From Amyelois transitella (lineage: Eukaryota > Arthropoda > Insecta > Lepidoptera > Pyralidae), in contig NC_083511.1 in NCBI RefSeq assembly GCF_032362555.1, positions 62,001 to 126,000 of the forward strand: a stretch of 64,000 bases of DNA, given 5' to 3'. How positions within the stretch are numbered: the stretch's first letter is position 1; each line of letters opens with the position of its first letter. A program made the translations under genes and the position numbers. This document shows positions 31,741 to 54,500 of this stretch, in pieces. Under the pieces are notes generated by a model, which was not told the DNA's origin, did no database searches, and saw only the letters and a program-made list of their open reading frames with translations.

Positions 31741-32072
31741 GTATTGTAAGATAGTCTGTAATCAATTAAATAATGAATTTTTTGAAAGCAACTTCGAGAT
31801 TAAACTTCAACGTAGATGTATCTGAGGGAATTCTATTACGAGATTTTGAATTATGAGACACACGTACAAACCGCGTTACGATAGTGAACTATAATTAGTT
31901 CGACTAATAAGTATTTCTCATTCGGAATGCCAGCGTGCAAGTACCTACATGGCAATGCAATCGTTTCTCAAAGTCAAGCACTGTGTGATTGACTGCAGGC
32001 AAACAATGCAGTCAATAGATAGTCGGTTTTGACAGTGACGAGACCTTGACCCACTGGCTCTCCACCACTTAC

Positions 32073-32184
32073 AGCGACGCCCAAGGCGAGGTCGGTGGCG
32101 GGCCGCCGCCGCCGCCCAGCTGCTGGAGGGTGCTGTGGGCGACCACAGTGCCATTAGAGCTGCCGACGCGGCCACCATCCGTAC
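32073..32184 (-). other. Candidate orphan coding exon
   Basis: A 112-nt GC-rich block on the minus strand flanked by a strong acceptor (TTTCCAG|GTACGG) and donor (GCT|GTAAGTGG). One open frame reads TDGGRVGSSNGTVVAHSTLQ then a Gly run and PPPTSPWAS; a second frame is also open. No parent gene is visible in the window, so it may belong to a long-intron minus-strand gene or be a noncoding exon. Confidence 0.3.
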
Positions 32185-32664
32185 CTGGAAACTCGTATAT
32201 TTATAGATTTCACATTAGGGAATTCCGCAGGGAAATTCACATTTTAAATCAATCGTGATTTAGTAATAATTAAACCTGCTTGTCAATCGCTAGTCGCTAG
32301 GTATATATATTACTTCTACCTCATTACTTAATGGTGACTCTGTTTGATAGCTCGAACGGTTAGAGATCTAGACATAATATAGTACTGTGTACTAAAACAT
32401 ACCGCTTGTTAGATACGAGTTTGAATCTCCACACATTTTATCGAAAGTATCAATCGATCACAGTGTCATTGTTTAAAGAGAATATTGACAATCAGCGCGA
32501 CGAAGCGAACCCAATTGGAGCCCTTGATACATCCATTTTGTACGTAATAACCAACCGACCCTGCAGTGGAGCGCAACACCTATCTGGGTCAAAGATCGGG
32601 GAGTGCCAGTGATTCATGGGGATTTGAAGATCGTGGGCATCAGTTCTGTGTAGTGTGAAAAACG

Positions 32665-32864
32665 ATGGAAGATAAAGTAAAGTCTAATGGTGGCGATCAG
32701 AAAGTGACGTTGACGTGTGGGGTGGATGCTGATGGAGTTCTTCGGCAATTGGGGCAAGCGGGGAGGTTCCACCTGCGCACGTACGTGCTGGTGGCGCTGG
32801 TGGCTGTTCAAGTCGGTCTGCTGCACACTACCTATATATTCCTGGCTGCGGACCTGCCTTACCG
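32665..32864 (+). CDS. Gene C alternative first exon 1a
   Basis: The ATG opens a 66-codon frame, ending TYIFLAADLPYR at the donor CG|GTGAGT in phase 2. It encodes a cytoplasmic tail with DADGVLRQLGQAGRFH, TM1, and the start of extracellular loop 1. Joined to exon 2 at 41300 it restores an Arg codon and gives a 552-aa protein. An arthropod initiator-like TCAGT occurs at 32640-32644. No exons 2-8 follow before exon 1b, so it either splices to the shared exons or is a relic. Confidence 0.75.
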
Positions 32865-34914
32865 GTGAGTCGAATAGATCTTATAGCTTAAGCTAGTAGT
32901 GTCTACTAGAGCTTGATGAGCTAGTAGGTACAAATTGTCGATTTCTCTTAAAGAAAAATTTTCAAACAAATCTGTTTAATAACATAAGTTTCAATTCACT
33001 TTTATTATTTTAAATGGTGGCTAACCACATGTCACGTTATCGTTCTTTCATATCAATTAGTATTTGAATGCTTGAGGTTTTGAAAAACTATTCGATAATA
33101 GCTCTTACATTTCAAACCTCGTTAGTTGACAAGTTAAGAGTCTTTGTGGTTACAGCAGCATGTACCGGCTCGTCCAATAATGTACACATCATTACCTTAT
33201 TCATACTTATCAAATATACATCGTGAATCGCTCATATATAGCATTTTCTTTAGTTTTTGCATTCTTTTAAGTAGGTTCAAGTTTCTGATTGTCCCGTGAT
33301 ACTTCTTTTTCCTCGCAGATCGGAAAAGTAAATTAAGGGAAAGTCCTCTTAACTTGGGATTCTTCTTTAACCAATAAGTTAGTAATCTGTCCCTTTTTGA
33401 ATCTCAATTCGGTCATTAAGCTATCCCACTGAACTAAGCCTTCAAGTCTTCGCAAGACAGAAGACGACGACGAAGAAATAAACGTGACTATGAATGTATT
33501 CTTTGAAACATTGATGTTTGGAGTATTCTTAGGCCATAGGACCAGTTCGTACTTACTACCTAAAATCTCGCTTCTTTTTCGCGGGGTACCTGCCTGATAG
33601 CAATCTTGGTTGTTGTCTTATCAACAACCCGTGCTTTGGTATCGCCCTGGTTTTTGCATTCAACAAATATAGCGAACAGAAAGTAATAATGAACACAGAC
33701 CACGTTTGAATGACCGTTTATTTCTTAAGTAATCTCCTGCTATAGTAATTACGGGGTAATTGAACGCACAATGAAATTGGTTACCTAACTACATATTAAA
33801 GAAATAAAGTATCATTCCAATTTAATAAATAACGATTTATCAGCTTAAAGTTATGAATTTATGTCCAAGAATAATCTGGGAAAATGATATTGCTAAAACG
33901 TTTGATTATATAGCAACTGATAATTAGTGGTTATAATATTCGTTGGAACCCCCGTGAAATGACAGTCGTTAACGTGTTGACGTCCGACAATGATGTAATG
34001 ACACAGCGCCCGGCTCACTTCGTGCACCACAATACGCGCCGTCTCGCAGTGCGGTGGAACAAGGGCCGCGATATTTGCTTTATCATCTTTTAGCTGGAAA
34101 TCTCGCATACTTGTTTTTTTGTTTGCATTAATGTTTGAATTGTTTTAACAAGTTCCAGTGTTTATTCTCCTCTGTTATTTTCTTAAGGATAAATTTATTT
34201 GTCATTTATCCTTAGTTATTTTGTTTAATTATCACTATTGTTATTTGAGTTGGTATTTTTCCTCACAATATTGTTGCTCTACCTATATTCTCATATGGAG
34301 TATTGCTTACACCAGTTACAGGATAACCAATTGTATTTGGAGCTTTTACAGGAGGCTATAAAAGTATGATCTGCTTTATGTTGCGTGGGTCCAATAGTAA
34401 CAATTTACCATCAGATGGGCTATATACCTGTGTATCTATCTACTTCATTTTGTATGAAAAAGGAAGTCATTACTCTGAAGGTCAGATAAGGATAAGGTGT
34501 TAAATAAAATTAGTATGCAAAGAGGTGATGGGATTTGATGAGGATATAAACATTTGACCAGAGAAAAGAATAAAGCAGGAAGTGGGACATTTGAGGACGA
34601 GGCTCTGTAATATAATGAAGTAAAGCATAAATTAATATTTGTAAGTCACAGTATGTCGAAAAAGGCATAAAGCGAAACTTGTCTTCAAATTAGAAAAAAA
34701 TTAGTTATAAATATAAAAAAAAGTTCAATACTTTTAAAATACATACTCATTATATCTATGATAATCGTTTGCTAAATTTCTCTCTCCTCTCAGCTCCTTA
34801 TCAACGACAAAATTTAAGACTAAGGTAGTAGAAGTAATTTGTGATAATATTTCGAGTTTGCTATAAATAAACAAAGCGAACATTACGTATGGCCAGGAAG
34901 CAGAGAAAGTTTCG

Positions 34915-35090
34915 CTTGTCGGAGCTTGCGGCGTGCGCGTGGGCATGTTTACAAAGAGCCTTTAGCACCTGTGGCGGCACAGTAAGCAACGCCTCCGGCG
35001 CAGGCGCAGGCGCGGCGAGGATGCGCTGAGACCGCGCGACCAGTCGCGAACTGCGGGTCACCCTTCACCCGCGTGCCCCAACTACATAAA
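34915..35090 (+). promoter_or_regulatory. CpG-rich block upstream of exon 1b
   Basis: Contains repeated GGCGCAGGCGCAGGCGCGGC-type sequence within AT-rich DNA, 230-400 nt upstream of exon 1b's ATG. This fits a promoter or 5' UTR dedicated to that exon. Confidence 0.35.
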
Positions 35091-35319
35091 AACATTTAAA
35101 CCTGACGTAAACATAACTCTTTGGAGGTTTATTTAAACTTATAAACTTATCCGTATACACTTTAAAAAAACGAACTCGGATTTAGTTATTTTAAAATTAA
35201 ATTTAGCAATTTATTATTAAATGTCCTTTAACTTTACAATCTAATTTATTTGTGGTAATATCCTTGCACGCGCCTATATGTGAAATCAAACGTTTTGACA
35301 CACATTTCATTTGATCAAA

Positions 35320-35531
35320 ATGGAGAAATCCTCGGGAAATATTGGAAAACCAGTGGCAGCGGAAGTAGTGTCTCCGGCAAGTGAGGGTTTTGACACGGAG
35401 CGGCTGATGCGAGAGTTGGGCCAAGGCCGGCTGTTCCACCTGATGAACTATGGTCTCCTGGCCGTCACCGTGTTCATGGCCGCCATCTACGGGATTAACT
35501 ACGTGTTCCTGGCTGGCGATGTGTCCTACAG
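35320..35531 (+). CDS. Gene C alternative first exon 1b
   Basis: The ATG opens a frame of 70 codons plus 2 nt: MEKSSGNIGKPVAAEVVSPA, then the conserved FDTERLMRELGQGRLFH, TM1, and NYVFLAGDVSYR at donor AG|GTACTG. The phase equals exons 1a and 1c. Joined to 41300 it gives a 556-aa isoform. An in-frame TTG at 35311 was discounted as a start. Confidence 0.75.
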
Positions 35532-35889
35532 GTACTGTAGCATCATCATCTATCCATATTTTGACAAGTATAATAATTAAAGTTTGATGTAATTTTGTTT
35601 TAGTCTTATCTTGTTTGTTAGTCTTATCATGGCAGTTTAAAGTTTTCAAACATTCTTTCTGTCTAATCAATTGATTCGGCTTCTACCTGATGTTTGTATG
35701 TATATAAATGCTACAGCTTACTTAAGAACAAACCTGAAGAGAATTATTTTTGAATCATAATTTAATTATAAAACTGAGTGTAAAACAAAATCAGAGAACA
35801 ATAAATAATCCGCACACTGTTTTAGCAAACTAATTGTTTTTTTTTGTTCGATCTTCTTCTTTTATTCTTGTTACTTTATTTTTATGGAA

Positions 35890-36118
35890 CCGATATTGTA
35901 CTACTAGCAAGCAATCTTCTCTTTCTTCCTCCTGGCATTACTTCTAGTTGCATGAGACCCGGAGAAGACTCCAGAGAAGCGAGGAAAACAATGATTGACC
36001 ATGGACATACACAACTAGGAAAATAGTCCTTGGTTCATGATCGAGGTGGGATTTGAACCTGTACCTTTATGCCGGGCCTTCATACCGATTTGACCACCGA
36101 TGCTCTCAAGGTACTACC
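35890..36118 (-). repeat. tRNA-derived SINE
   Basis: On the minus strand GAGCATCGGTGGTCAAATCGG and a B-box GGTTCAAATCC form a tRNA-like head ending near 36050. The body runs left to about 35890. It lies in the gene C upstream region, between exons 1b and 1c. Confidence 0.55.
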
Positions 36119-37241
36119 TACTAGCAAGCATTATTATAATATTTTTTTTTGCGAATGGTTCATAAATACCTAAAACTTGATGACAAAGCAAATACTTAGC
36201 TTTAAATTTTATTTACCACAAACTCAATTAGCAGACTATAGTGGAGGCTAGAGGATATTTACTTTGCAAATTATAAAAAGCAAGACAGCTTGATGTAGGT
36301 GTGACGCGTCCCGGATACATGGACCGCTGGACATGCTTATTGGTCCTTCGCAATTGTCTAGTCTGGATCCTGAAGGACACATCCTGTTAGCGGGCTGCAG
36401 ACTGATGACATTCTTGAATACAGTGCATCCATTGATTGAACTTGATTCTGTCGAGGATAATTTGCAAAGGGTATGCAAGCTCCATTAAAATGAAAAGTTT
36501 CACTTCGCGGTCGCTACTGTCGTCAAGAATCAAGCGCCTAATAAACGCACAATTGTCAAGCTCAATAGAAAAAAAATAAGGCTAAGACGGTTAACTTATG
36601 GAGGCATTACAATGTGCGAATTTTTAAGCTTTATTCGTAATCGTTATTATAAGTAATTCTGGGAGTTAAATGCCTGTAAAATACGGACATTTACATTTTT
36701 AGAATGGTAAATAAATAACATGGTGACGAGAAGGATCATAGTCCTAGGAAATTTTTCAATTGTAATTCTTCAATGTGTCACTTGATGTTAACATTATTAT
36801 CGTATTTATTGATTATAAAAATTATATTTATTCCACTTATCTTAATTTATACATAGAGGTATAATAAAGAGTGTATTGAATTGAAACAACAAGCATTTGA
36901 ATTGAGTGATAGATTATCTCGCAACTTAATCCGAAAACCCACACTAGTATATTTTACAAGGCAATATTGCAAAATACGAATTTAAGACATCGCTTTGACT
37001 AAAAGCATATTTAAATAAATACATATTTTTCAATAAATATTTTCGAGTATTTCCTAATATAGAGAATTGTCGAATTGACGGATCGCTATATTGGAGATCC
37101 ATGAAATAGGGAAAGTTGTGAGAGTCAATGTAGGTACCTAAAGAAGTGTAGTACTCATATTTGTATGTTGTAAGGCGTTCAAACATGCTGTGAATGGGTT
37201 TTTCCTTCAGCAGATGAGTTATGGGTTATTCTCATTTGATA

Positions 37242-37503
37242 CATACATACATATGGTCACGTCTATATCCCTTGCGGGGTAGACAAAGCCAACAGTCTTG
37301 AAATGACTGAATGGCCACGTTCAGCTATTTGGCTTAACGATAGAATTGAGTTTCAACTAGTGACAGGTTGCTAGCCCATTGCCTAAAAAAGAATCCCAAG
37401 TTTGTAAGCCTATCCCTTAGTCGCCTTTTACGACATCCATGGGAAAGAGATGGAGTGGTCCTACTCTTTTTTTGTATTGGTGCCGGGAGCCACACGGCAA
37501 CTA
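37242..37503 (+). repeat. Full-length family X retroposon
   Basis: A 262-bp element from CATACATACATATGGTCACG to GCCGGGAGCCACACGG, bounded by the target duplication ATTTGATA (37234-37241 and 37504-37511). It is the best reference copy of the family in this window. Confidence 0.75.
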
Positions 37504-38139
37504 ATTTGATATTTTATGTATGTATTTATATTTATAATGTATGTATTCTGTATATATTTTATGCATCTTGTATGTATTTTGTTTGTAATGTATGTATTCT
37601 GCAGTATGCATGTGCAATTGTGCACTTTGTCACATATCGCCAACGTTTGGTCAGCTGGTATACCGAACGGCAAGCGGTAACCAAGGCCGTCCTTTGTACA
37701 ATTTGTTGAGCAATAAAGTTTAAAATAAAAAATAAATATGGAAAAAATTTAATATCTGTAAACCTTTAATTTGGTGGAATCTCTCTCAGTCAAGCGTTTC
37801 AGAGAAAGGATCACTTTAAAATTTTTACAAGAACTCTGACTTGTTCTAATTAAAACAAATGTTTTTATTTGAACTTGAATTCTTAATTTGGGACGACTGC
37901 AGATGATGATAAAGATGGCATGGTACTTTCCACTCGATGTTTAAAAGTAGTCGCCGTAACCGATGTGACTGCTCATAATACAAACGTACTCTCAGTACTT
38001 ATAATTCCTTTTATTGTTTTTTTTAATTAATTGTAGGAAATAAACTGGAACTCGTACATTTTGAGCTGAGAGAGATTAGCTGTCGAATATTTAGCGATTG
38101 TGTTTACATTATTACAGTAAATGTTATGAGTTCGGTGTC

Positions 38140-38200
38140 GCCAACTTCCAGCGCGGCCGCCGCGGCGCTCAGACGGTCGCGTGCTCGTCGGTTTTGCAAA
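38140..38200 (+). promoter_or_regulatory. CpG-rich block upstream of exon 1c
   Basis: AGCGCGGCCGCCGCGGCGCT and the following bases form an isolated GC island about 200-260 nt before exon 1c's ATG. TCAGT initiator-like sites lie downstream, near 38220 and 38268. Confidence 0.35.
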
Positions 38201-38399
38201 TTGTCGACGAAATTAGTATTCAGTGGCTAGTAAATTTTATGCTTTATAAATCCGCATTTCAAAGGTTTCAGTTGTCGAATAAGGTCGTCACTCACAACAG
38301 AGTTTAAACTGTCTAACTTTTGCCTAATAGTGTACTGAACGAGTTGGCAAAAATAGCGTATGGTGTTGGTTTCAAAAAGGTTTAGTTGAAAATAAAGTG

Positions 38400-38596
38400 A
38401 TGGGTGAAGGAAAAGCTGTCAGGGATTCTTGTCAGGGGGGTGGTGTGGACACAGAGCGGGTGATGAGTGAGCTGGGAGCCCGGAGCCGCTTCCACCGCTT
38501 CCAGCTGCTGGTGTACGCGCTGGCGGGCGCGGCGCCCTGGACCGCCGCCCTCTACAGCACCAACTACATTTTCCTGGCTGCTGACGTGCCGTACAG
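38400..38596 (+). CDS. Gene C alternative first exon 1c
   Basis: The ATG at 38400 (a GTG at 38397 was discounted) opens MGEGKAVRDSCQGGGVDTER, then VMSELGARSRFHRF, TM1, and STNYIFLAADVPYR at donor AG|GTTATA. Phase 2, as in 1a and 1b. It is the first exon nearest to shared exon 2 and gives a 551-aa protein. Confidence 0.78.
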
Positions 38597-41500
38597 GTTA
38601 TATTTTACAAATCTTAAGTTGGATGGTAGAAAAGAGGATAGTAAGATAACTCTAACTCAGTCATGAGAAATAAGACTTTTATTAAATTTTGTTGTGTAAT
38701 AATTCATTCGGATTTCTATTGTATCGAAAGATGGTCAGCATTCGAATTGCACATAAACAACGAACAATCAATATGTATATTGCAAACTTATAGGAAATAC
38801 CTACAAAGCTATGAACTGTCATAATATGAGAGCACAAGAAGGAATTAAAGGCATAATAAGGATAATTGCCCTGACCACTAATGCGATGCAATACGTTCAT
38901 TACTTTCAAACGAAACACTAGGGAGACACTTAAATATCGCTAAAGATGTCAATAAAATTATATTTTCGTTTCGTGGACCTTGCATCGTTTTATTGTTACG
39001 CAAATGTCCACCCACACTTGAAGTCGCATATCCATTATCAATTTAACACTTCGTTACTATGTTTGCATTTACTTATTCTTTTTAATGTTTAGAAACAAAG
39101 TACCTGTTGAAACAGCGGGGTGCGACTTGTTTTAGGTTGACATTCAAGTGAATTGTTATCGCTACTTCAAATGTTTAATCAAGCTATTCAATAACAACAA
39201 GCACACAACAGGAGAAACATAACTACTGACGCGACATCTTATTTAAACAATTGGCGCTGAGTAAGAAAAATTATAGATTTATACGAACCTAACGTAAAAA
39301 TGGGACGTCAGAAGATTATATCCAACCATTTTTTATGAGGTATACAAGGTTGAATTCGTCAGTATAGACCTGAGAGATATTAAAATTAAAAGCTACCATG
39401 GAGAAATACAGGATGAAAGAGTTAGACTGGGAGAGCCAAATATAGTGTTGGGAAGAGACTGCTGGAAGAAGATGCAGACCTGAGTGACCAATAAGTTCCC
39501 AAACACGACGTGCTTTTGTGTTGTATGGTCACAAATTATAATTTAAATATAAATCCCATACACTTAACTTCAATACGGAATCCTCAAAGAAAACTCCGAG
39601 CAGTGTTCGCCCTTGGCAAATTTTTATAACATTTTATGACAAAAAAAGACAACAATCCGAACAAAGTAAAAATAAAAAAAGATTAAGATCCTGCTATAAA
39701 TAGTAACTTCGTGCTCCATTATGTGACATCACTGTTATTATACTATTCATTCGTATTTCGCTTTTTTGGTTTGTAAAAAATCTATAGTCGAACTTGGTGG
39801 TCGTCAGTTATACTGATGATACTTAATTACTCCACTGATTACGTGCATTAAATGAGCTGAAAGAAATCGAAGATATTATTAGTTTTTATTCCTACATACT
39901 ACATATAACCACGTCTTTATTCCTCATGGGATAAACAGAAGTAAACATTAGTATCCAAATTATTATATTTATCTCTTCAAGGCGATAGAAAAACAACACC
40001 AACATGTGAGTGGAAATGAGGTTTTAGTTCAACCACTTTTCTGTTTTCTATTATGTTAACATTTGCATTATCTTTCTAGCGCTGGGTGGTGGTGGTGTCA
40101 ATATCTTCTATTGCAGAATTCTGAGAGTTGGGACAATCGTATTCGTCGTAGTAAAGTTATTCGGAAATGCTTGGTTTTCACTGCATGTGGAGAATATACA
40201 TAAGTTCTAGTAACTATTAGACAAGTAGTTTATAAAATTGTTTTGTATTTATTTGCGGCACGTGCCCGCACTGGCACTCGTGCGCAATCGCGGTAAACTA
40301 CGTGTTTCAATTTGAAGCACTTTCGTACATTATTGTACATGTCCTCTTGATTTGCAAGGATAAATGCTTACAGAAACTAATTCTTTAGAAACATTCAATA
40401 AAGCTGTCTGCATCCATTCCAGTTGAGTTTTAACAATTTTCAAATTGATATAGGTATTGTGGTTGCACTAGCAATTTTTCGTATCCTTAATTAAAAATAT
40501 GATTAAAGATTCTCGTATTTACAAGATCTGTGACCGTTAGTCACCTTACATTAGGTACATACTTAGATCTTACTCCTAAATCGACGGGTATAAAGTAATG
40601 GCCCATTCACAGACTAATTTACTTGTACGCACTCACATTGTCTTCCATCCATTGTATAATTAATTGCCTCGGAAGCCACAGTCGTAGATAAGGACATGCT
40701 CTCTTATCTGGATGCAATAACAGGCATAGTTGCATTAAGTGCATCTGCTTTGTTGCACGCGAACTGATTCTGCAGTCATCACGTGGCACGCGTGAAGTCA
40801 CTTCAAGCTGAGTTTAAATTTGAAGCAGGTTTGACGAAATAAGTATGAATTAGCCATATTCGTTTGTAAACTATTTATCGCACTTAAAATGAAATATAAC
40901 AAATTACAAAACAGTCATTGCATTTAGAAGAATATGTTCCGTATTGTATAATGTTTTACGAGGATACTCGTAAAATTTGAAAAAATTCAAATGAGGGCCA
41001 GCATCGTTACTACAAGTATATAAATCTCAAATCATATGAGGATAAGAAGTTCTTGTTATTTGTTTATGTCGGCCTCGTCTAATAAGATCTTTTACTTGTT
41101 TTTTTTTGTCAAATGTACGGAGACACTACTAAACAGCTTTTCTTTTTAATTTAGCACAGAAATAGACTAGACTTTCATAAAAAGTGAAGTAGCACAAAGC
41201 TTTTTTCTTCCTTTGAACTGGAAACCAGATAGAAATTCCCAGGACTTTGCTCGTAAATGTGTAGTAAAACAATCTTGAATCCAACATATTCCATTCCAGA
41301 TGCGTGGTCCCCGAGTGTGAGTTGTCCAACAGCACGGAGTACCACCCCGCCTGGCTGGCCGGCGCGCTGCCCCCCGCCGGCCGCCAGCAGCGCTGCTCGC
41401 GCCGGGAGCCGCTGGGCGCGGCGGCGGGCTGCGGCGCGGGCACCGCCTTCGCGGAGGAGCTGCGGCCGTGTGACCAGTGGCTCTATGCTTCCTGGGATAC

Positions 41501-44500
41501 GATAGTTGCTGAGGTAGGTCAGATTTAACTTTGGTAAAAAAAGGTTAATTTTGAAATAAGTGCCCTGTGGCTCCCGGCACCAATATAAAAAAGAATAGGA
41601 CCACTCCATCTCTTTTCCATGGATGTCGTAAAAGGCGACTAAGGGATATGCTAACAAACTTGGGGTTCTTTTTTAGGCGATGGGCTAGCAACCTGTCTCT
41701 ATTTAAATCTCAATTCTTATCATTTAGCCAAATAGCTGAACGTGGCCATTCAGTCTTATCAAAACTGTTAAGACTGAATGGCCACGGCTCTGTCTACCCC
41801 GCAAGGGATATAGACGTGACCATATGTATGTATGTATTGATAAAACGACGACAGTTCTTACTAAGCAGCTTTCAGCAGACCACTTCCCGCTCCCGCTGGG
41901 AACGTGATGGGTCGGGCGGCTAATTCCACTGCCGCCATTCCAGTTTATTATAAGTTCATAAGTTGTGAAAGTCTTAAAACATTCTAGATCTACAATTTGG
42001 GTGGTCTGAATGTTACTGATGATATGACTGCTCATTATCCAGTGAGAAATTGACAGAAAGGTCACATTTTTGGTCACATTCAACAAAACGTTTGGACTCT
42101 CCAATAATGTGTTACTTGACTTTTCCTACTATTAACTTAATTTGTTTCTTTAATTTATTAGAAAGCTTAAGAAGATCTGTATTAAAAAATCTAAAAATAT
42201 CTTTGTGTTTTCTTCTTAATTCAATCAGACTCAATATAACTTTCATTTCATGCCTTCACGGACAGGTGCTAAAAGGGACAGTGAAATGGTCTAACGACTT
42301 TCATTGATTATACGAGTCACACTGACCAAAGTTCATGCTACAGTAGGAACTTTCCTATAATTATTTACCTTATCGGGTCAACGCCGACATTTCTGGAGCC
42401 GTCATTGTTATTCCCCAGTAAATAGCTTCTTATCGTGGAATAAGTGAAATGCTTATTAGAATTTTTTTTATTATTGTACTTTTAAACATATTTACGATTA
42501 TACAATTTAAGAAGATTATAATTAGATTTTATTTTAATTAGATTTTATTTTAATTTAGTACCTACCAATAGATTTCTTGAAAGTAAGAAATTTTATTCGA
42601 TTAAGAACTCAAAATATATCTTGAACTCCAAAAATGTGCGGTTCAGTGCCCACTAATGAAAGATGCTGTTTCGACCTTGTCACAAAAGGCATTGACTGCC
42701 AATAGAGCGCGGCACGACCTTCGGCACCCAGCTTCATCAATCTACCGCAGAATTACGCATTCCTCCTCGTAAACCTGACCGCCAATTTTAATCTCCTTAC
42801 GCAACTGATAAGAAAACGGTTATAAGTAACGTTACGTCTATGCATTAGTTATTGATTTGTATTTTGTTTGATAAATTATATGATTGCCAAATCTGGAGGA
42901 TAAAATGGGTTAGCAGAGGTCTAAATATTAGTTTTATCAACTCCCACTCCCACTTAGTAACTGATATTATTTTTTTGGTTTATAATTTGGCGCATGCTAC
43001 AATTTTTACACGGTCATTTGGCTACAGTTTTGTACCCATTGTACTTTTATTATTTATATTCATATATTCAATTATTATTTTTCGTATAACCTAAGATAGA
43101 TAAATTTCATAAGCATGTTCTTAGGTATAAGTGTGGAGTACTACACTTTTCAATTGTCGAAGATCAATTTCAAAACCATAACGGTACTTTAGCAAGTCTA
43201 ATCAATTATAGAGATATACATACATCGACTAATAAATATGTAGGCGGAGAAATGACATCGGCCTAGCTTACTAGATTTTGGAAACCCAAGATCAATAAAA
43301 AGAAAAACGTTTTCTATTATGATCTGACCGAGGATCGCAACCCGTAAGCACCGCTACCACTTCGCCAAACAATAGAATAACGCGCTCTGCAACGTACTCC
43401 TACACGTGTTAAAAATGTTTACTGCGAGTCTAGAGATATGTATCTGATGGTTTGCGGAGGTCAGCGCTTACGTGCGAGGTCACATTATGATGTTGCTGGT
43501 TACTTTTTTGTACAGATTGAAGAAAAAACAATAAATAAAAAAATTACAAGCGTAACTAAAACATAAAGACAGGTATTTTTTGAAAAAAATGTTTAAATGG
43601 TTTTTCGTATTTCTTGTTGTTATCGAAGGATATGGAATTAGGACAATACAAGGAAGAGAACTGCATCAAGCTAGTTTCAATTGTCCAAAAGTTCCTGAGC
43701 ACATTCGTCTCAATGGAGGAAACATCTAATTCAGTCGCTAAGTGGCGATGCTTGTCTTTTGCTAAATGGACAATTATAATTAAGCTGATTTTTAATTGGA
43801 ATACAGTAAGGCCGTTGGACTATTATGGGTTTTAAATAGTAAAGCCACCTCTGCATTCAATCCACTGCTAATTTTATATTATGGTGTTGATTTCAATGTG
43901 GCAAGTGTGGCCGAATTCTGATGTCATGTCTGGGATATGACTTATGAAAATAAAAAAATAACAATTATGATTCTTCAATAAACAGTTGGGATTGTATGCT
44001 ATAATGTTATGGTAAATGATGGTGCAGTTGGTTTAATTGTATTGGTCTCGGATGGATGGATCCTCGACATTGTTCCAGTGTCAACAGACGCGCTGTATCA
44101 CTGCGCCGGCGCAACGCATGGCCGCTTCAACTAATAGGACCATACCGAGATATGTAAATGTACAAACTGAGATAGCACTGCATACATAATACTTACTGAA
44201 CATGGTCACAATCACAATGGATAAACTTAATACCCACTTAAATCCTCTTTTAATCTTTGGGATTTATGCAATTACTCTCTGATCACTCTCATAAAGCATT
44301 TGTTAAATCCAGACTTTCATGCACCTGTTTGTTATGCTCTGCAACTGAAAGTGAAACAATGTGATCTGTCAGAGTCGACGTGCTAATACAAAAATTTAAA
44401 TTTTTCAAAACATAGTTTGGAGCAATTGTACAGTATATTCCATATACGGCAGGGCTTTCAAACGAACCTATGTGAATTAGAAATATTTTGGTCTGACTGT

Positions 44501-47500
44501 GATATTCCACCTGTTCCAGTTTAACTTGGCATGTCAAGAGTGGAAGCGCACCCTGGTGGGCACCATCCATAATGTGGGCATGCTGGTCTCGCTGCCCATT
44601 CTTGGATACATATCAGATCGGTAATAATTTCCACTTTTAATCTTATCTTTACGATCATATTAAACTTACGAATTTTTAAATTCGAAATCTAATATATATT
44701 CGAATCGAAATAATTTAGTGCTGTTACAATTTCTGGCATAATAATAGTTTTGTAGGTTGATCAAATACGGATAAGGTTTCCCTGCAAAGGTTGCGGAGGT
44801 AAGATGGGAGCTGCCTCGTGTAAAAAATTTGATGAACGGATCGGATCTGAAAGACGGATAGACAGACGACGTTAAAATCCTTAACACGTTTGTTTCCCTT
44901 CGTGGCAAATGGCTCAAATGTTTGGGTTTAAAAGTGCCTTTAAATTGATCTGACGGCCTCTGTGGCGCAGCAGTAATACGCTTGCCAGTGCATCGGGTAC
45001 GATCCCGGGCAGGGGATGATGAGAAACGTATTTTATTTTGAATTAACAGGACTTGACATGACGCTTAACATATTTTTTTATGAATCTTTCGTTTTCGTTA
45101 GTTGGGGCCGCAAACGCGCGCTGATCCTCAGTTGTACCTTAGTGGGGGCCATCGGGTCGCTGAAGGCGTTCTCCGTCTCGTACGAGATGTACGTCGTCAT
45201 AGAGTTCCTCGAGACCGTCGCCGGGGCCAGCGCCTTCCCCGCCGCCTATATTCTCAGTTAGTATCACTTCTATGTTTATTCACTAAATGTTACTAACTGA
45301 TACCTAAAAGTTAGTTTTATCAATAATTTGAAGGTGATTATTTTAAATATCGGTTAATAGGTTTATTGAATTAAAAAATCATTCAAATTGAACAATCATA
45401 TTCAAGGGGATAAAATGACTGTGAAATATATATTATGTATATTAATGTTCTATTCAAACTGTGTACAACATTTAAACAAACGTTTTGTTTTACAGCAATT
45501 GAACTCTTGGGCCAAGATAAGCGAGTGCTGACGACGGCCTTCCTTGGCATAATGTTGGTATTGGGCGGCCTTAGCTTTGCTCTCCTCGCCAAAACCTTCC
45601 ACTACTGGCGCACATTCATCATAGTTGTCTACCCGCCCTCGTTACTATTCATATCCTACATCTACTTACTGCCTGAGAGTATTCGCTGGTTGCTCTCCAA
45701 AGGCCGGAAAGAAGAAGCGGTTGAGATTATAATGAGGGCAGCAAAGATGAACAACGTCACGTTGTCGGAGGAGACAATGAAGCAACTCACGGAAGAAAAG
45801 CCCAAAGAGACGAAGAAAGAAGAGAAACAAGAGGAGAGTGGTCTGTGGATGCAGGTAAGTTAAAAAACTTGTGGAGATATCACGCTCGTTATAGGCAAGT
45901 TGCTATATATGTGTTTAAAACTCTGCGTGTGTGTTTCTAATACGGCATCATAATGTTTCAAACAGATTAACTTTGTTTGTGCAGGTGCTGCGTTCTCCAA
46001 TCATCATGACACGCCTTGCCATTTGCTCCTGGTGGTGGATTACTTGCACCTTCGTCTTCTACGGTCTCGCCATCAACAGCGTCTCTCTGGCGGGGGACAA
46101 GTACACCAACTACATGTTGGTGGTGAGCGTGGAGGTGGTGGCGGTGGTCACCAACGCGCTGGTGCTGGACCGCGTGGGCAGGAAGCGGACGCTGCTGGTC
46201 GCGTACACTGTTTGTGGGTTGTCCTGTGTCGCTATCGCTTTTGTTCCTAAAAGTAAGCGGACCTTTATTTATCTCTACGTTATTTTGAAATCAATTGTTA
46301 TCCGTATAGCGCAGTATCAGCCATGTAATGGTAAGTATGTAATAATGTAATTGGTTGGTGTTATTACGAGTAGTACGACTGCTTTCTTGTAAAAGAAACG
46401 TTATAGTATTTTGCTGTTCTAAATGCATTTTATTCGTGAATTTTGTGTATTTGCACTGCTTTTTACTGTTTGTTGAAATTTACGCATTCAAGAATTGTTT
46501 TTTGTTTCCTTAATTTTATTAAAAATCATTTAATTTTCAGTCTCTTACCTAATGAACCTGTACCTAATGAAAAATCTGTTACTTTTTATTCCAGGCCTGG
46601 CGTGGCTAGCGACCTTGCTGTACTTGGTGGGCAAGATCGCCATCACGCAGGCCTTCAGCGGCATCTACATGTACACGTCGGAGCTGTTCCCCACGCACGC
46701 GCGCCACTCGCTGCTCGGCTTCTGCTCCATGGTGGGCAGGATTGGCTCCATCGTGGCTCCGCAGATGCCGCTATTGGTAAGAATTATGTTGTAACAATGG
46801 CAAGAAATAGAACTATATATAGAAAAGTCTCTGCCCTTCAGTTTTGAAATTAGATATGTAAATTTTAAGCAGTTTTTAAATTTTTTACGAAGGATAATAA
46901 AATAAAATAAAATATAAAATCTGCGCGATAAAATCTGGATAATTTTTTTTGCAATAATCTTTTTATACGGAAATCAATTATTCACAAATTGCCCTCGGAT
47001 CACACCGGTCAATATGTTACCTTTGAGAAAGAGTCCTTAAACAATTTAAATAATGATAAAATTATGTGTAGACCTCTTTCTTCCAAAAACATAAGAAAAT
47101 TTAAAATAAACATTGCAAATCAATTAAATACTTTAACATATTCTGGAAATAATCCTAATGAACATTATAACAATTTATTTAATATGATTTCTGCTGAATA
47201 CTCAAAAAGGTTCAAGCAGAAACAAGTCAATATTCGTAATAGATTACAGTTCAGTGAATGGGCTACATTAGGTATTCACAAGAGTAGGAATAAGTTATAT
47301 GACTTATATGCCCAGAAACAATACAATTTTGACCCCAGTTTTGTAGAATATGTCAAAAATTATTCAAAATTATTTAAAAAAGTTTGCAGGCAAGCCAAGT
47401 CTTTTCACATAAGTAGTAAAATAAACAACGCACCAAATAAAATTAAAGAAACATGGAACATTATTAATAAAGAATCTGGCAAAATCAAAGATAGAGACAG

Positions 47501-50093
47501 TATTAAACAAATATCATCCGGTAACAAAAGTATTTCTAAAACTCAGGACATAGTAAATGCTTTTGATAATTTCTTTGCAAAAATCCCTGTGGAGCTAACT
47601 TCTGACGTTGACTCTTGTCCATTGCGCGCTGAAACCCTACTTAATAATAACACAACTCCCATCAAATCTGTCTTTAAATTTAAATATGTTAACTCTGATA
47701 TTATATTAAAGGCGTTCAAACAACTTAATTTGAAAAAGTCTGAAGACCATTGGGGTATGTCTGTTAGTATCATAAGTCAAATCATAGATATTATTGCATC
47801 TGATCTAGCTTTTATATTTAATGAATGTATTGATGAGGGTATTTTTCCAAATTTAATGAAATGTAGCAAATTAATACCTCTATTCAAAAAAGGGGAGAAA
47901 ACAGTCCTTGGCAATTATAGACCTATTTCTATATTGCCAGTTTTGAGCAAGGTGTTTGAGAAGATGATGCTTAATCAAATGCAACAATATTTTAAAATCA
48001 ATAACATTTTCCATTCCCAACAATATGGGTTCACTGCCGGGAAGTCCACCACTGATGCGGGAGTAGCACTTGTTACTCAAATCTATGACGCGTGGGAGAG
48101 TTCACAGGATTCAGTTGGAGTCTTTTGCGATCTCTCTAAAGCATTTGATTGCGTAGATCATCAGACACTTTTGCGTAAACTTCGTCAATATGGGTTTGAC
48201 CACAAATCAACTAAACTAATGGCATCCTATTTGACTGATAGGCTTCAAACTGTAGATATTAATGGAGTAAAGTCAAGCGGATCAAGCGTCTCAATGGGTG
48301 TTCCTCAGGGCTCAATTTTAGGACCATTCCTCTTCTTGGTATATGTCAATGACCTGCCTTTTATGGTGGAAAAACAGGCGGGTATAGTGCTGTTTGCCGA
48401 TGACACTTCTTTAATATTTAAATTAGATCGCCATAGCGAAAATGTAAGTTCGGTTAATAATATACTGTCGGCCATATCTATCTGGTTCTCAACCAACAAT
48501 CTTCTTTTAAATGCTAATAAGACCCAATGCATTAAATTTACCCTTCCAAACGTAAGGCAGGCCAATACTGACATAATACTGGAAGGCCAGAAATTAGAAT
48601 TTGTTGAAAATACAAAGTTTTTAGGAATTATAATTGATGCAAAGCTACAGTGGGGTGCTCATATTTCTAAACTATCCAATAGACTTAGCTCTGCCGCTTA
48701 TGCTGTTAGGAGGATCCGACAATTGACAGATGTAGCTACAGCTAGGCTTGTTTATTTCAGCTATTTTCATAGCTTGTTATCTTATGGTTTACTTTTATGG
48801 GGTAGCGCGGCTGATATACAAACTATTTTTATAATTCAGAAAAGGGCCGTTCGCGCAATTTACGGCTTAGGACCAAGAGACTCGTTAAGACAACTCTTTA
48901 AGAAAATAAACATACCTACAGTAGCGTCCCAGTACATTTTTGATCTTATAATGTATGTTAGGAAAAATACCTCTTTTTTTCAAAAAGTTAGTGCCACAAC
49001 TGATAGAAATTTACGTAATAAACATAAATTAGTCATGCCGTTTCATAGGCTTAGCAAAGTCAGTAAATCATTTATGGGGAACTGTATACGATTTTATAAT
49101 AGGTTGCCGGAGTCTGTTCTTGATATGCCCTACCGAAAATTCAAAGAGTATGTAAAGAAAGTACTTTGTGAGAAGGCTTATTATAGGACTGATGATTACC
49201 TTAATGATAAAAACATCTGGCTCGAGCTTGGCACAGGAACCTCGTAATTAATTGTAGTTTAATTTGAACTTAAATCAAAATTTCAGTACACTCTGTACAT
49301 AAATCTTTTTAAAATTGGCAATCCATAAAATATATATATATATATATATATTTCTTTTTTCAATATTAAATCTCATAAATATATAAATCTCCCGTGAACA
49401 ATGTATTCTCCCGTCCACATTATATTCTAAGTATAATTTAATATTGTGAAGTTGACGTTGTTAAAGAAAATGCTGCAGTGCAGTTTGTTACCGCTTCTTC
49501 TGCACTGACGCCTTGGAAGCGGCAGTAAACTTAGTTTTTAAGTAATATATTTGACGTCAACCAAGTTGTTAAACCATACGACAATTATTAAGCGATATAA
49601 TAATATCCTATAATAATGAATAAAAATTTTGAATTTTTTGAATTTTGAAGTTAGTTTGGGGTTAGAAGTTTTTAATAATAATTAATAATGCAATATTCAT
49701 ATTTAATTTCTATTTTTCTTTAACTTAGATTCAAATCACTTTTTGTAACGGAATGGCATATGTGCTTCGATAGGAGTAGTGTTATCTTTGTAATGAAATA
49801 ATTTACATTAAGAAGTGGCTCACCCTTGCCTTCAATGTGATCTGTCTCTAGAAAACGTCTTCCATCTTTGTTGTTTATTGTTTGCTATTGGTTAATTTAT
49901 AATTTGGTTACAGGCAATATACGTAGAGTGGCTGCCGTCAGTGCTGTTCGGGGCGACGGCGTTAATCGCAGGCGCGTTGATGCTGACCACTCCCGAGACC
50001 CTGAACACGAGGCTCCCCGACACCATCCAGGAAGCGGAGCAGATCAAGAACCAGCCACGAAGCAACGAGATGCAGATGAATAATACCAGTTAA
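38400..50093 (+). CDS. SLC22-type organic cation transporter, gene C (isoform with exon 1c)
   Basis: Shared exons are 41300-41513, 44520-44620, 45102-45256, 45496-45854, 45985-46252, 46595-46776 and 49914-50093 (TAA). With exon 1c they encode 551 aa. Loop 1 has an NST sequon and many Cys and Ala residues. Motif A SDRWGRK spans exons 3 and 4. The SLC22 signature PESIRWLLSKGRK is in exon 5, followed by a charged Lys/Glu-rich cytoplasmic loop. SELFPTHARHS is in exon 7 and TPETLNTRLPDT in exon 8. The exon-3 and exon-4 lengths (101 and 155 nt) equal those of genes A and B. It is predicted to be a plasma-membrane transporter. Intron 7 carries a complete reverse-transcriptase ORF. Alternative first exons at 32665 and 35320 would swap the tail and TM1. 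Confidence 0.9.
41566..41836 (-). repeat. Family X retroposon carrying an internal 17-bp hairpin
   Basis: Begins CTGTGGCTCCCGGCACCAAT and ends CATATGTATGTATGTAT. Unlike other copies, it has GTGGCCATTCAGTCTTA (41742-41758) followed after 10 nt by its exact inverted copy (41769-41785). It lies in gene C intron 2, whose remainder (41840-44519) is AT-rich. Confidence 0.7.
43310..43380 (-). repeat. tRNA-derived SINE remnant
   Basis: The minus strand reads TGGCGAAGTGGTAGCGGTGC then GGGTTGCGATCC, an A-box and B-box pair without a full tRNA fold. It lies in gene C intron 2. Confidence 0.35.
44952..45035 (+). repeat. Truncated tRNA-derived SINE
   Basis: GACGGCCTCTGTGGCGCAGC and the following GATGATGAGAAACG match the SINE at 1069. 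The B-box is damaged (GGTACGATCC). It lies in gene C intron 3, just before exon 4. Confidence 0.6.
46989..49247 (+). CDS. Reverse transcriptase of a Jockey/CR1-group non-LTR element
   Basis: An uninterrupted 752-aa frame. The RT blocks read in order: LGNYRPISILPVLSKVFEKM, FCDLSKAFDCVDH, SMGVPQGSILGPFLFLVYVN and the catalytic LFADDTSL (Asp-Asp at about residues 471-472). A C-terminal domain follows. The N-terminal apurinic endonuclease expected of this class is missing, so the first Met is simply the first one in the surviving frame. With no stops or frameshifts the insertion looks young, but it cannot move by itself. It is nested in gene C intron 7 and is not part of the transporter. Jockey-superfamily or CR1-like is the safest class. 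Confidence 0.85.
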   Translation: MPSDHTGQYVTFEKESLNNLNNDKIMCRPLSSKNIRKFKINIANQLNTLTYSGNNPNEHYNNLFNMISAEYSKRFKQKQVNIRNRLQFSEWATLGIHKSRNKLYDLYAQKQYNFDPSFVEYVKNYSKLFKKVCRQAKSFHISSKINNAPNKIKETWNIINKESGKIKDRDSIKQISSGNKSISKTQDIVNAFDNFFAKIPVELTSDVDSCPLRAETLLNNNTTPIKSVFKFKYVNSDIILKAFKQLNLKKSEDHWGMSVSIISQIIDIIASDLAFIFNECIDEGIFPNLMKCSKLIPLFKKGEKTVLGNYRPISILPVLSKVFEKMMLNQMQQYFKINNIFHSQQYGFTAGKSTTDAGVALVTQIYDAWESSQDSVGVFCDLSKAFDCVDHQTLLRKLRQYGFDHKSTKLMASYLTDRLQTVDINGVKSSGSSVSMGVPQGSILGPFLFLVYVNDLPFMVEKQAGIVLFADDTSLIFKLDRHSENVSSVNNILSAISIWFSTNNLLLNANKTQCIKFTLPNVRQANTDIILEGQKLEFVENTKFLGIIIDAKLQWGAHISKLSNRLSSAAYAVRRIRQLTDVATARLVYFSYFHSLLSYGLLLWGSAADIQTIFIIQKRAVRAIYGLGPRDSLRQLFKKINIPTVASQYIFDLIMYVRKNTSFFQKVSATTDRNLRNKHKLVMPFHRLSKVSKSFMGNCIRFYNRLPESVLDMPYRKFKEYVKKVLCEKAYYRTDDYLNDKNIWLELGTGTS
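49451..49561 (+). other. Predicted H-type pseudoknot in retrotransposon 3' UTR (copy 2)
   Basis: The same interleaved stems as copy 1. CAGTGCAG (49476-49483) pairs with CTGCACTG (49500-49507). CCGCTTC (49491-49497) pairs with GAAGCGG (49516-49522). They are closed by GTTGACGT (49451-49458) with ACGTCAAC (49554-49561). Confidence 0.55.
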
Positions 50094-51367: not shown

Positions 51368-51540
51368 TCCATTATCTGAGTTAGCAATAAGCATAGTAGG
51401 TAGTTTTTGAAACTCTTTCTTTAGCATTTTTGTATTTTCATCAAAAACTATATGATGTTTAGACATACATATGTAGAGAGATAGGTGAATTTCAATTAAA
51501 TAAATTTTAAGAATCAAATAAATGCTAAATAGAAGAAGGC

Positions 51541-51546
51541 TTTATT
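51541..51546 (-). terminator. Poly(A) signal of gene D
   Basis: AATAAA on the minus strand begins 10-11 nt after gene D's TGA. Gene E has the same arrangement at 60642-60647. Confidence 0.5.
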
Positions 51547-51556
51547 AGTTAACAGA

Positions 51557-54500
51557 TCACTTATTGAGTTGACGTTTGCTGAGGCTCTCGGCCTCCTCCA
51601 TGGTGTTGGGCAGCTTGGTGTTGAGCGTCTCCGGCGTGGTGAAGATCAGGATCCCGGACAGCAGCGCGAACCCCCCGAACAATATTTGTGGCAGCGGCTC
51701 CCACACCTCTGTACCCTGAAATAACATGTACAATATTATCAGACTTTAATCAAACAAAACTAAAGAAATCATTAAATAAAAGTCAATCGACCAATTAAAA
51801 AAAATTGAGGCTTATCAGATAATCTTGTGCTGTTTTATAAGCTGGGGAGGAGAATGCAAAGGACATGAAATCGGAAGGGGAGGGTGAATGAGAAGTTAGT
51901 AACACTCGTATGAGAAAATTTTTATTACAGGACACGACTCTTCCATATTAACGAACAATGCACGCATTTTCATTCAATGTTTGAGATTCCTTATGGTAGT
52001 AGAGTAACTATACGAAATACAAATACCCAATTAAGTAATACTCACAAGAGCGGGAGTGAGTGGCGCCGTGATGGAGCCGAGCCGGCCCACCATGGAGGCG
52101 AAGGCGACAAGGCTGTGGCGGTACTTGGTGGGGAACAGCTCGGCCGTGTACACGTACACCGACGTCATCACCACCGCGATGCTGTACTTCCCCACCAGGT
52201 ACACCGCCATCGATAGCCCGGCGTGGCCTGCAAATATAAAACACGTAAAATCTTTAATTTGTATGATTTGCGTAGATTGGTGCCGAATTTTAAAATCAAC
52301 AGATGATGAAGCTATCAATTATGACCACCGTGTTGATGAGTCCATCGTTATTGTTTATGAAGAGAAATGAACGGATGATGATTTTGTATTTGAAAGCTTA
52401 CCATCAGGCATGAAGGCGAAAACAAACTGGCATATGGAACACAACCAGTACGCAGTGATGAGAACTGGCTTCCTGCCGATGCGGTCCAGCAGCATGATGG
52501 CCGTCCAGAAGCCGGGGATCTCAATAGCAGCCACATACACATAGTTCAGGTATCTGTTACCGGATAAGTTCACGGCATTGATGTTCATGCCGTAGTAGAC
52601 GAGCGTATTCGTGATCCACCAGATTGGAGCCACGCAGCATCGGAGTAAAATCGCACGCGATCTGAACACGAGTATCGGAAGCCATGGCTCTTTTGGTTTT
52701 TCTATATGTTTCTCAGCCTCAGCAGTCGCTCGTAGTAGTTCCAAAGATTTATCAGACAATTTCTTCTTGTTTGCTTTTGCGACTTTCTTCAATATGGCTT
52801 CTGATTCTTCATAGCGGCCTTTACTCATTAGCCAGCGCACAGATTCTGACAGGATCCAGAAATAAGAGACGACGAAGAGTTGGGGTATGTAAAGCACTTG
52901 GGTGAGAGGGCGCCAGGATTGGACCCCCCACGCAATAAATCCTAAGATCACCTGTCCCACTGCAAACATCGTTGATATTGTGGCACCCGCTTTTACTCGA
53001 TATTTGGGGCCAACCAGTTCAGTGACTGAAATCAATCAATGTATTAATAAGTTTAATTTCTCTGTGACTAAAAGTTAAATGACATTATGGTTGAGGCCTT
53101 ACCCAAAATGTGACAAGAAGAGAACGCCCCCGCCCCGACAGTAGACTCAATGACTTCAAGGGCCAAGAACCATTCATAGCTGTTGACGAAGGAGCGCACG
53201 AGCCCGATCCAGCCCGTGTTGAAGGCATTGATGGTGAGGGCGACGCGGCGGCCCCAGCGGTCGGAGATGTACCCCGTGATGGGCAGCACCAGCAGCGTGC
53301 CGATGGTGCGGATGGAGCCGATCTGGCTGCGACGCCACTCATCGCACGCCATGTCGAACTGTGCACAAATTACATAAGCTTTAAGAACTCGTAATCCACG
53401 AGTAGATGACGAGAAAAGTAAATAGATAAAGATCTGTTCCACTTTGTGTACAGAGAGTTTGTATTTATAGTAAGTGAATTCATAGTTTTGCCTTTCCTAT
53501 CGCTAATAAAAGGTAGTGAATGTTCAGCACGAAATTATTTTTATGAAATGGATTTTGTTCATTTTATATGCTGACTTGTGTATAGATTATCTATGTTGTT
53601 TAAATCAATGATTAGAAAACAGAAGATTAAATAAATTAAAAAATGAATTGATTACAGATTATCCTTTATCATAAGATTTTATAACTTACATCATAGACGA
53701 CGCTAAGAGTGTTTTCATAGACATAACCATCGCAGTCTTCCACCCTGGCGCGGTCGAACCAGTCAGCCGGGCAGGAGTCGTTGCTGGGGAGCTGCGGGAG
53801 GCGGTCCGGGAACCGCGAGCAGGCCTCGAAGGAGTCCCGGCTGGTGCCGTTGATGGCGTTGAGCACCCACTCGGGGCGGAACTCGGGGTGCGGCGCGGCG
53901 CTGGCGGGACCGTCGCACTGCGTGATGCGGCATCTGGGGTTGAAGGTGACTTGTGTTTAGAGCTACCATGTTCTGTAGGAAACAGATAAATAAACCTGCA
54001 AGATAAAATAAATCAGCTATAAAAATCAATGCCATTGATGTTTGGCTACATTGACGAACTTAGATTAGTGTTCGGACCAACATGCCTCTGTGTTCCCTAT
54101 AGTGTACCTATTTAGACAATTTCTGACTACTACATAATGTATTTAACAGCATTTCCTTCTTTTTCAATACATATACGCACTTTGACATACATTAAGAAAT
54201 ATACAAAGCTCACTTTGCTTTTAAAATATTCTCATTCTCAAATCGACTGCAATAAATGTATAATCGTCAGATCCGGTGTTTACTCGTATGTATGGAATGA
54301 TAATACCATATTTTGATACGAATTATGCTAAAGGAGCATTACTTCTGAATCTTATCTAGATGTAATTATCATAATGTATGTTCTAACTAGCTATAACCCG
54401 CAGCTTCGCCCGCGCGAATTCGAACGCCCGAACCGGGCTCTTCTCCGAAGAGGTCGCATCCAGGACTAATGCCAAAAGGAAGATGATCGTTTTGTGGCAA

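What the first reader, a model, noticed from the sequence alone, without database searches (positions are those of the whole stretch)
32665..50093. A transporter with three interchangeable first exons (UGT1A/protocadherin-like layout)
Three intact exons at 32665, 35320 and 38400 each encode a different N-terminal tail plus TM1. They share a D-(T/A)-(E/D)-x-x-x-x-x-L-G...RFH/LFH and NYxFLAxDxxYR-like frame, and all end in phase 2. No exon 2-8 lies between them; the single downstream set starts at 41300. 1b and 1c have their own CpG-rich block upstream. In MFS transporters TM1 lines the central cavity, so promoter choice could swap part of the substrate path while keeping the rest. I know of no described SLC22 gene built this way. 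The alternative is that 1a and 1b are relics of lost tandem genes, but their open frames and donors argue against long decay.
Basis: partly seen in the sequence, partly recalled or inferred. Interest (0 to 1): 0.82.

Follow-up and report, generated by a model that had tools for sequence, protein, structure and literature searches.

The report
Moth transporter with interchangeable first exons
A moth gene for a membrane transporter has three alternative starting pieces, two of them shared with other moths and at least one with butterflies, so one gene can probably build the transporter with different versions of a helix thought to line its transport channel.

Summary
The window is Amyelois transitella. 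An SLC22-type transporter gene (32665-50093) has three intact first exons (1a, 1b, 1c), each coding an N-terminus plus TM1; all end in phase 2 before one set of exons 2-8. The relic explanation fails. 1a-type and 1b-type exons are separate conserved lineages in Lepidoptera. In Anticarsia, isoforms X1 (1a-type) and X2 (1b-type) share an identical 492-residue tail; a Dendrolimus protein model holds both types in the same order. Amyelois isoform X2 is exactly the 1c product. No tail relics lie between the first exons, and no near-identical second tail was found in the genome. 1a and 1b differ at fixed TM1 positions, in the stretch that meets substrate, sodium or the outer gate in human relatives. 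A second SLC22 gene on another contig has its own set of three first exons. Not shown: RNA reads, separate promoters, tissue choice, changed transport. The age of 1c is open. Nine open-literature searches showed no description; automatic annotation already lists isoforms. It is a new variant of the UGT1A-type layout.

The parts
32665..32864 (+). first exon 1a (N-terminus + TM1, signature ...VQVGLLHTTYIFLA), phase-2 donor CCG|GTGAGT
35320..35531 (+). first exon 1b (N-terminus + TM1, signature ...AAIYGINYVFLA), phase-2 donor CAG|GTACTG
38400..38596 (+). first exon 1c (N-terminus + TM1, 1b-like pocket residues), phase-2 donor CAG|GTTATA; the exon used in annotated isoform X2 (P0013)
32865..41299 (.). 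interval around the first exons without any relic of exons 2-8
   Evidence: tblastn, paralogue tails as positive control
41300..41513 (+). shared exon 2 (start of the extracellular loop, CVVPEC...)
44520..44620 (+). shared exon 3
45102..45256 (+). shared exon 4
45496..45854 (+). shared exon 5
45985..46252 (+). shared exon 6
46595..46776 (+). shared exon 7; holds the Arg aligned to OCTN2 R471
49914..50093 (+). shared exon 8 with the stop codon
21571..30258 (+). neighbouring paralogue (gene A), eight exons and a single detected first exon (21571-21707) with the same phase-2 junction

Best explanation
One SLC22-type transporter gene makes at least three proteins by using one of three first exons (1a, 1b or 1c), each spliced in the same phase to the single set of exons 2-8. 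Shown: three intact exons, a common junction, one such tail found in the genome, and the same two exon lineages joined to the same tail in annotated proteins of other Lepidoptera. Inferred: each first exon has its own promoter, so tissue or stage decides which TM1 the transporter gets. Also inferred: the swap changes the pocket, gate or coupling. 1a puts Gln, Gly, Leu, His and Thr at OCT positions 31, 33, 35, 36 and 38, where 1b has a variable residue, Ala, Tyr, Ala/Gly and Asn; the carboxylate-binding Arg in TM11 stays the same. I put the alternative-first-exon architecture at about 0.9, separate promoters at about 0.75, and a change in transport at about 0.5.
For: Open frames and matching phase. 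Amyelois isoform X2 (P0013) equals the 1c product letter for letter. Anticarsia X1 and X2 have identical 492-aa tails and 1a-type and 1b-type first exons that are 34% alike. Heliothis (1a-type) and Helicoverpa (1b-type) tails are 97.1% identical while their first exons are 50% alike. The Dendrolimus predicted protein P0001 holds a 1a-type then a 1b-type exon before one tail. P0015 is a 565-aa 1a-type protein on a 2,339-base contig, so cDNA or an intronless copy (inference); its tail is nearest to Brenthis, 87%. Core identity is 75.8% on average within 1a (21 pairs), 67.3% within 1b (105 pairs) and 45.7% between them (105 pairs). Fixed differences: position 31 Q 7/7 against 0/15, 33 G 7/7 against A 13/15, 35 L 7/7 against Y 15/15, 36 H 7/7 against A9/G6, 38 T 7/7 against N 14/15. 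Outside the gene's own exons, none of the 83 genome matches to P0013 exceeds 69% identity, and those over 60% are short pieces (capped, 79 of 195 candidates scored). Exon 1a has one full match; the next best is 46%. Seven of the 20 relatives, from six species, carry isoform X labels. A second SLC22 gene in this genome has three intact first exons, and two of them show dN 0.14 against dS 1.48.
Against: No 1c-type exon was recognised in any other species, and its branch is long in the tree with outgroups (1.66; 0.58 without them). The 1b and 1c donors match the consensus only 6 of 9, though other donors of genes A and B score 5-9. Promoter signs are weak: TCAGT occurs within 600 bp upstream of 1a and 1c but not of 1b. 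dN/dS for 1a-1c between species could not be measured, and pairwise dS among them is saturated or uninformative. AlphaFold models were too poor to place the residues (mean pLDDT 43.0 and 42.4).
Confidence: 0.85

Rival explanations
1. 1a and 1b are leftovers of tandem genes whose other exons were lost; only 1c is used.
For: The gene lies in a tandem cluster of SLC22 genes, so loss of neighbours is plausible. The neighbour gene A has one detected first exon.
Against: 1a-type and 1b-type exons are conserved as two lineages in Lepidoptera and are joined to the same tail in Anticarsia models. No tail relic lies between the exons. Frames and donors are intact.
Confidence: 0.03
2. One upstream promoter and a shared non-coding first exon; 1a, 1b and 1c are mutually exclusive cassette exons chosen by splicing, not by promoter.
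For: Only weak promoter signs were found for the three exons. AG dinucleotides lie between the in-frame stop and the ATG of 1c, so an acceptor is possible there.
Against: Between the in-frame stop (35296) and the ATG of 1b there is no AG, so no acceptor lies in that stretch; one further upstream would leave a stop before the ATG, which a 5' UTR allows. Each exon starts with its own ATG, which is typical of alternative promoters (inference).
Confidence: 0.15
3. The three first exons are real, but they matter only for expression pattern or for N-terminal sorting; transport itself is the same.
For: The N-terminal tails before TM1 vary most in length and sequence (alignment), and promoter choice alone could be the selected function.
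Against: The TM1 parts differ by fixed residues kept within each lineage, which pure promoter choice would not need.
Confidence: 0.3
4. The layout is an assembly or annotation artefact (missing exons 2-8, or genes merged in error).
For: The gene sits in a repeat-bearing tandem cluster with near-identical neighbours D and E.
Against: The window has no N. Two first exons on one tail are also seen in Anticarsia, and the same exon order in the Dendrolimus model. No near-identical second tail was found in the genome.
Confidence: 0.02

Closest known systems
UGT1A and clustered protocadherin loci (variable first exons, one shared tail; recalled)
   Same: Several complete first exons in tandem, each with its own start codon, joined to one shared set of downstream exons.
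   Different: A multi-pass MFS transporter in an insect. The first exon supplies one helix (TM1) of a bundle, not a whole substrate domain or ectodomain. Only three exons, and promoters not shown.
SLC22 family: OCTN2 (PDB 9pdq), OCT1, OCT3, OAT1, URAT1
   Same: Same family by sequence (E 1.7e-69 to OCTN2), the large loop after TM1, and the Arg aligned to OCTN2 R471 in 20 of 20 tails.
   Different: The OCTN2 sodium-site residue N32 and the PNGFxG motif of TM1 are absent from all three exons. No literature found here describes an SLC22 gene with alternative TM1 exons.
Annotated 'organic cation transporter protein-like' isoforms X1/X2 of Lepidoptera (RefSeq-style names)
   Same: The same gene: Amyelois X2 is the 1c product, and Anticarsia X1 and X2 have 1a-type and 1b-type first exons.
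   Different: Automatic annotation only. The names do not say that the isoforms are old exon lineages, how TM1 differs, or that a second gene has its own set.
Mutually exclusive exons inside membrane transporters (for example cationic amino acid transporter CAT-2A/2B; recalled)
   Same: One gene makes transporters that differ in a short segment.
   Different: There the alternative exons are internal; here they are first exons with their own start codons.

Membership tests
SLC22 transporter | Sequence similarity to solved SLC22 members over nearly the full length | tested here: met
   Residues 31-539 match OCTN2 (9pdq) at E 1.7e-69; also OCT1-3, OAT1 and URAT1; Pfam MFS_1 and Sugar_tr over cut-off.
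SLC22 transporter | Large extracellular loop with cysteines between TM1 and TM2 | tested here: met
   Four cysteines in the part coded by exon 2 (C68, C73, C99, C124 of P0018) are invariant in 19 aligned relatives.
Sodium-coupled OCTN subgroup | TM1 sodium-site residue N32 and the PNGFxG motif (PMC12780140, passages) | tested here: not met
   The position of N32 holds V (1a, 7/7), A10/L4/Y1 (1b, 15) or A (1c), and the motif is absent from all three exons. S28 contributes by its backbone, so its identity was not used.
SLC22 members that bind carboxylates (OCTN2 type) | Arg in TM11 equivalent to OCTN2 R471 | tested here: met
   Aligned Arg; motif present in 20 of 20 tails.
UGT1A-type variable-first-exon gene | Several intact first exons with ATG and the same donor phase before one shared tail | tested here: met
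UGT1A-type variable-first-exon gene | Each first exon is spliced to the shared tail in RNA | tested here: inconclusive
   Models for 1c in Amyelois and for 1a and 1b types in Anticarsia, and a 2,339-base contig with a 1a-type exon; no reads seen.
UGT1A-type variable-first-exon gene | A separate promoter for each first exon | not testable with these tools
   Only weak composition and TCAGT signs; needs CAGE or 5' RACE.
Relics of tandem genes | Decay of the exons and traces of lost exons 2-8 | tested here: not met
   No traces; 1a and 1b types conserved in Lepidoptera.

The most novel reading that the evidence does not exclude
Lepidopteran SLC22 genes use plug-in first exons as a way to change transport: a common phase-2 junction lets new TM1 exons be added in front of an existing body. 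The choice between 1a (cavity Gln/His type) and 1b (Tyr/Asn type) gives one gene two substrate ranges or coupling modes, kept since early in the order's history. The same design arose a second time in another SLC22 gene on another chromosome-size contig, perhaps for handling plant chemicals.
Probability: 0.35. Interest if true: 0.78.

Novelty: new variant of a known kind. Interest (0 to 1): 0.58.

Why it matters
SLC22 transporters carry metabolites, signalling molecules and drugs or other foreign chemicals, and their number is usually counted by genes. If one gene yields transporters with different channel-lining helices, gene counts understate the range. The case is also a natural helix-swap experiment: in Anticarsia two forms share an identical body and differ only in the N-terminus with TM1. 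That makes it directly testable what TM1 does in this fold. A second, separately expanded set in the same genome suggests that the layout is a recurrent route to new transporter forms.

Tried and rejected
Relics of lost tandem genes: rejected. One recent local duplication giving all three exons: rejected, since the three Amyelois exons as one clade have p-AU 0.0006. Whether 1c is a pyralid-only copy of 1b or an older third lineage could not be settled: p-AU 0.508 for grouping it with the pyralid 1b exons, with the held tree 1.53 log units better than the free one; the free tree puts 1c outside the 15 1b rows (87/81).

Structure prediction of the Anticarsia 1a and 1b forms (19-sequence alignments) gave mean pLDDT 43.0 and 42.4. 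I did not use them and ran no fold search. The viral contig scan found no relative. Pairwise dN/dS among 1a, 1b and 1c is uninformative.

Paper searches on this question: 0 papers; 20 listed of 202; 20 of 78; 20 of 105; 1 of 1; 3 of 3; 1 of 1; 10 of 5,072; 10 of 98. No listed title or abstract start describes alternative first exons in an insect SLC22 gene; unlisted papers were not seen, and many subscription papers are not held. I read passages only of PMC10940649, PMC12780140, PMC11837612 and PMC7379565.
Full report
What is there. The window lies at C7:62001-126000 of a 327-Mb genome. The 1c product of the gene is identical, letter for letter, to P0013, named by its source as organic cation transporter protein-like isoform X2 of Amyelois transitella. 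The contig length given for P0013, 12,169,293, is that of C7. The gene runs from 32665 to 50093 on the + strand. Three first exons (32665-32864, 35320-35531, 38400-38596) each begin with ATG and end with two bases of an Arg codon before a GT donor. One set of seven further exons follows (41300 to 50093), with AG/GT borders and a continuous frame for all three choices (552, 556 and 551 aa).

Is it more than chance? A profile of first exons run over 4274 open segments from 244 kb (the window, C7:156001-236000 and C15:8181001-8281000) finds 15 exons at E <= 1.2e-12, and the next segment is at E 0.14. All 15 have a phase-2 GT donor after AG or CG. The profile was built partly from these exons, so this is a survey and not an independent test. 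The independent test is conservation in other species, below.

Not relics. A tblastn scan of the window with the tail and the first exons finds nothing of exons 2-8 between 32865 and 41299 (best E 7.4). The same scan finds exons of the neighbouring paralogues at about 30-66% identity. Outside the gene's own exons none exceeds 69% identity, those over 60% are short pieces of paralogues, and the strongest long ones are 28-43% identical. Exon 1a has one full match in the genome; the next best is exon 1c at 46%.

Conservation. Three protein searches, each scored on one first exon plus the start of the tail, returned 15 (1b), 7 (1a) and 15 (1c) proteins at E <= 1, together 20 different ones. All 20 have a related tail (72-100% identical to Amyelois in the 19 compared, 79% for Dendrolimus). 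Sorted by first exon, with the exons of Amyelois added and the two of Dendrolimus counted apart, there are 7 rows of 1a type, 15 of 1b type and one 1c (P0013 is that 1c). The 1a rows form one clade (100/100, 100/97); the 15 1b rows hold together less firmly (87/81). Holding the three Amyelois exons together is rejected (log-likelihood 52.8 lower, p-AU 0.0006). The 1a/1b split is therefore older than the divergence of the moths in which both types or the 1a type were found (Amyelois, Loxostege, Heliothis, Anticarsia, Cydia, Dendrolimus; by recall six different families). The 1b type is also in named butterflies (Colias, Nymphalis, Vanessa and others). One 1a-type row without organism name has a tail nearest to the butterfly Brenthis (87%).

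Same tail, different first exon. In Anticarsia gemmatalis isoform X1 has a 1a-type and X2 a 1b-type first exon; the remaining 492 residues are identical and the first exons are 34% alike. Heliothis (1a type) and Helicoverpa (1b type) have tails 97.1% alike and first exons 50% alike. The Dendrolimus protein P0001 (619 aa) contains a 1a-type exon followed by a 1b-type exon and then the tail. I read this as a gene-prediction fusion that shows both exons in the same order. P0015, with a 1a-type exon, is coded on a contig of only 2,339 bases. A gene with eight exons and introns like these does not fit in that, so the contig must be cDNA or an intronless copy (inference). Seven of the 20 proteins, from six species, bear isoform X numbers, which are the style of RefSeq models (recalled). 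The database is clustered at 90%, so isoforms of one species can fall into one entry; this may hide further pairs, and the absence of 1c-type exons elsewhere is not evidence that they are missing.

What differs in TM1. I counted back from the common Arg-Cys junction, in the numbering of human OCT1/OCTN2 where the Cys is residue 50 (the OCTN2 part is aligned without gaps; the OCT1 numbering is recalled). 1a-type and 1b-type exons differ at fixed positions: 31 Gln 7/7 against 0/15; 33 Gly 7/7 against Ala 13/15; 35 Leu 7/7 against Tyr 15/15; 36 His 7/7 against Ala 9 and Gly 6; 38 Thr 7/7 against Asn 14/15. Genes A and C of the window have Tyr at 35 and Asn at 38, which suggests that the 1b state is ancestral; gene D has neither (Ala and Glu), so this is not firm. 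1c has Tyr 35, Ser 36 and Asn 38, so its pocket is of the 1b kind. In human OCT1, F32 is part of the aromatic bundle near metformin; the loop after TM1 is residues 44-142, so F32 lies in TM1 (PMC10940649, passages). In OCTN2, N32 (side chain) and S28 (backbone) of TM1 hold sodium, and L37 and V40 pack in the outer gate (PMC12780140, passages). The swapped stretch covers this part. The tail has the Arg aligned to R471 of OCTN2, which binds the carboxylate of carnitine, in 20 of 20 tails. A zwitterion or organic anion is thus a better guess for the substrate than a plain cation, despite the gene's name (inference). N32 and the PNGFxG motif of OCTN2 are absent from all three first exons, so sodium coupling by that site is unlikely.

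A second gene of the same build. In the 244 kb surveyed, the 15 first exons belong by position to 11 SLC22 genes; 9 have one and 2 have three. A twelfth, gene E, has no first exon in the window, and SLC22-like genes elsewhere in the genome (for example on C5, C16 and C18) were not surveyed. The second gene with three is on C15 (minus strand): first exons at 8212257-8212423, 8210127-8210299 and 8208443-8208612, all open with phase-2 donors, before one tail whose exon 2 is near 8201302-8201385. No tail relics lie between them (best E 0.32 over 19 residues). These three form their own clade (97/93), so the set arose separately from 1a-1c. Between the second and third exon dN is 0.14 and dS 1.48; the pairs with the first have dN 0.23-0.29 and dS 2.0 or saturated. 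This points to purifying selection.

How it most likely works. Each of the 15 first exons seen here ends at the same place and phase, just after TM1, so a duplicated first exon with a promoter can plug into an existing body. Gene B has kept two such exons since before the sampled moth families parted and has gained, or kept unseen elsewhere, a third. The likely mechanism is promoter choice by tissue or stage, which gives transporters with different N-termini and different TM1 faces. Architecture is shown by sequence and by models in other species; promoter choice and change of transport are inferred.

What is known. Automatic annotation lists the isoforms. Nine literature searches (capped lists, see Tried and rejected) in open PubMed Central papers gave no listed title or abstract start that describes alternative first exons in an insect SLC22 gene. 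PMC11837612 (passages) reports SLC22 orthogroups gained in Ditrysia, and the passages seen say nothing of first exons. PMC7379565 (passages) reports seven organic-cation-transporter-like proteins in Trichoplusia midgut brush border; which genes they are was not traced. The layout is that of UGT1A and protocadherins (recalled), applied to a helix of a transporter: a new variant of a known kind.

Verdict. What is missing is RNA from Amyelois itself and any transport measurement.

Noticed in passing
L012:1257-1423, L011:9127-9299, L011:7443-7612 (minus strand; G000:C15:8208443-8212423): A second SLC22 gene in the same genome with three intact first exons before one tail, a separate set.
   Followed up: yes
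G000:C7:218227-218379 and 218995-219177 (L025, minus strand): Two different versions of the exon-7 region (about 53% and 70% like the window gene) lie near each other in another SLC22 gene; possible alternative internal exons or parts of two genes.
   Followed up: partly
46932-49244: A reading frame of 771 codons without stop that looks like a LINE reverse transcriptase (by eye) lies in the last intron of the gene; a 3' stretch of the same element, 90.6% identical over 491 bp, lies in the last intron of gene A at 29579-30046.
   Followed up: partly
51514-54087 and 60619-63471 (minus strand): Two neighbouring SLC22 genes are recent duplicates, 95-98% identical over about 2.6 kb; no first exon of the second was found in the window.
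   Followed up: partly
31995-32195: GC-rich block (GC 0.63) upstream of exon 1a, so such blocks are not special to 1b and 1c.
   Followed up: partly
4835-10660 (+): Open frames that look like another major-facilitator gene outside the SLC22 cluster (by eye only).
   Followed up: no
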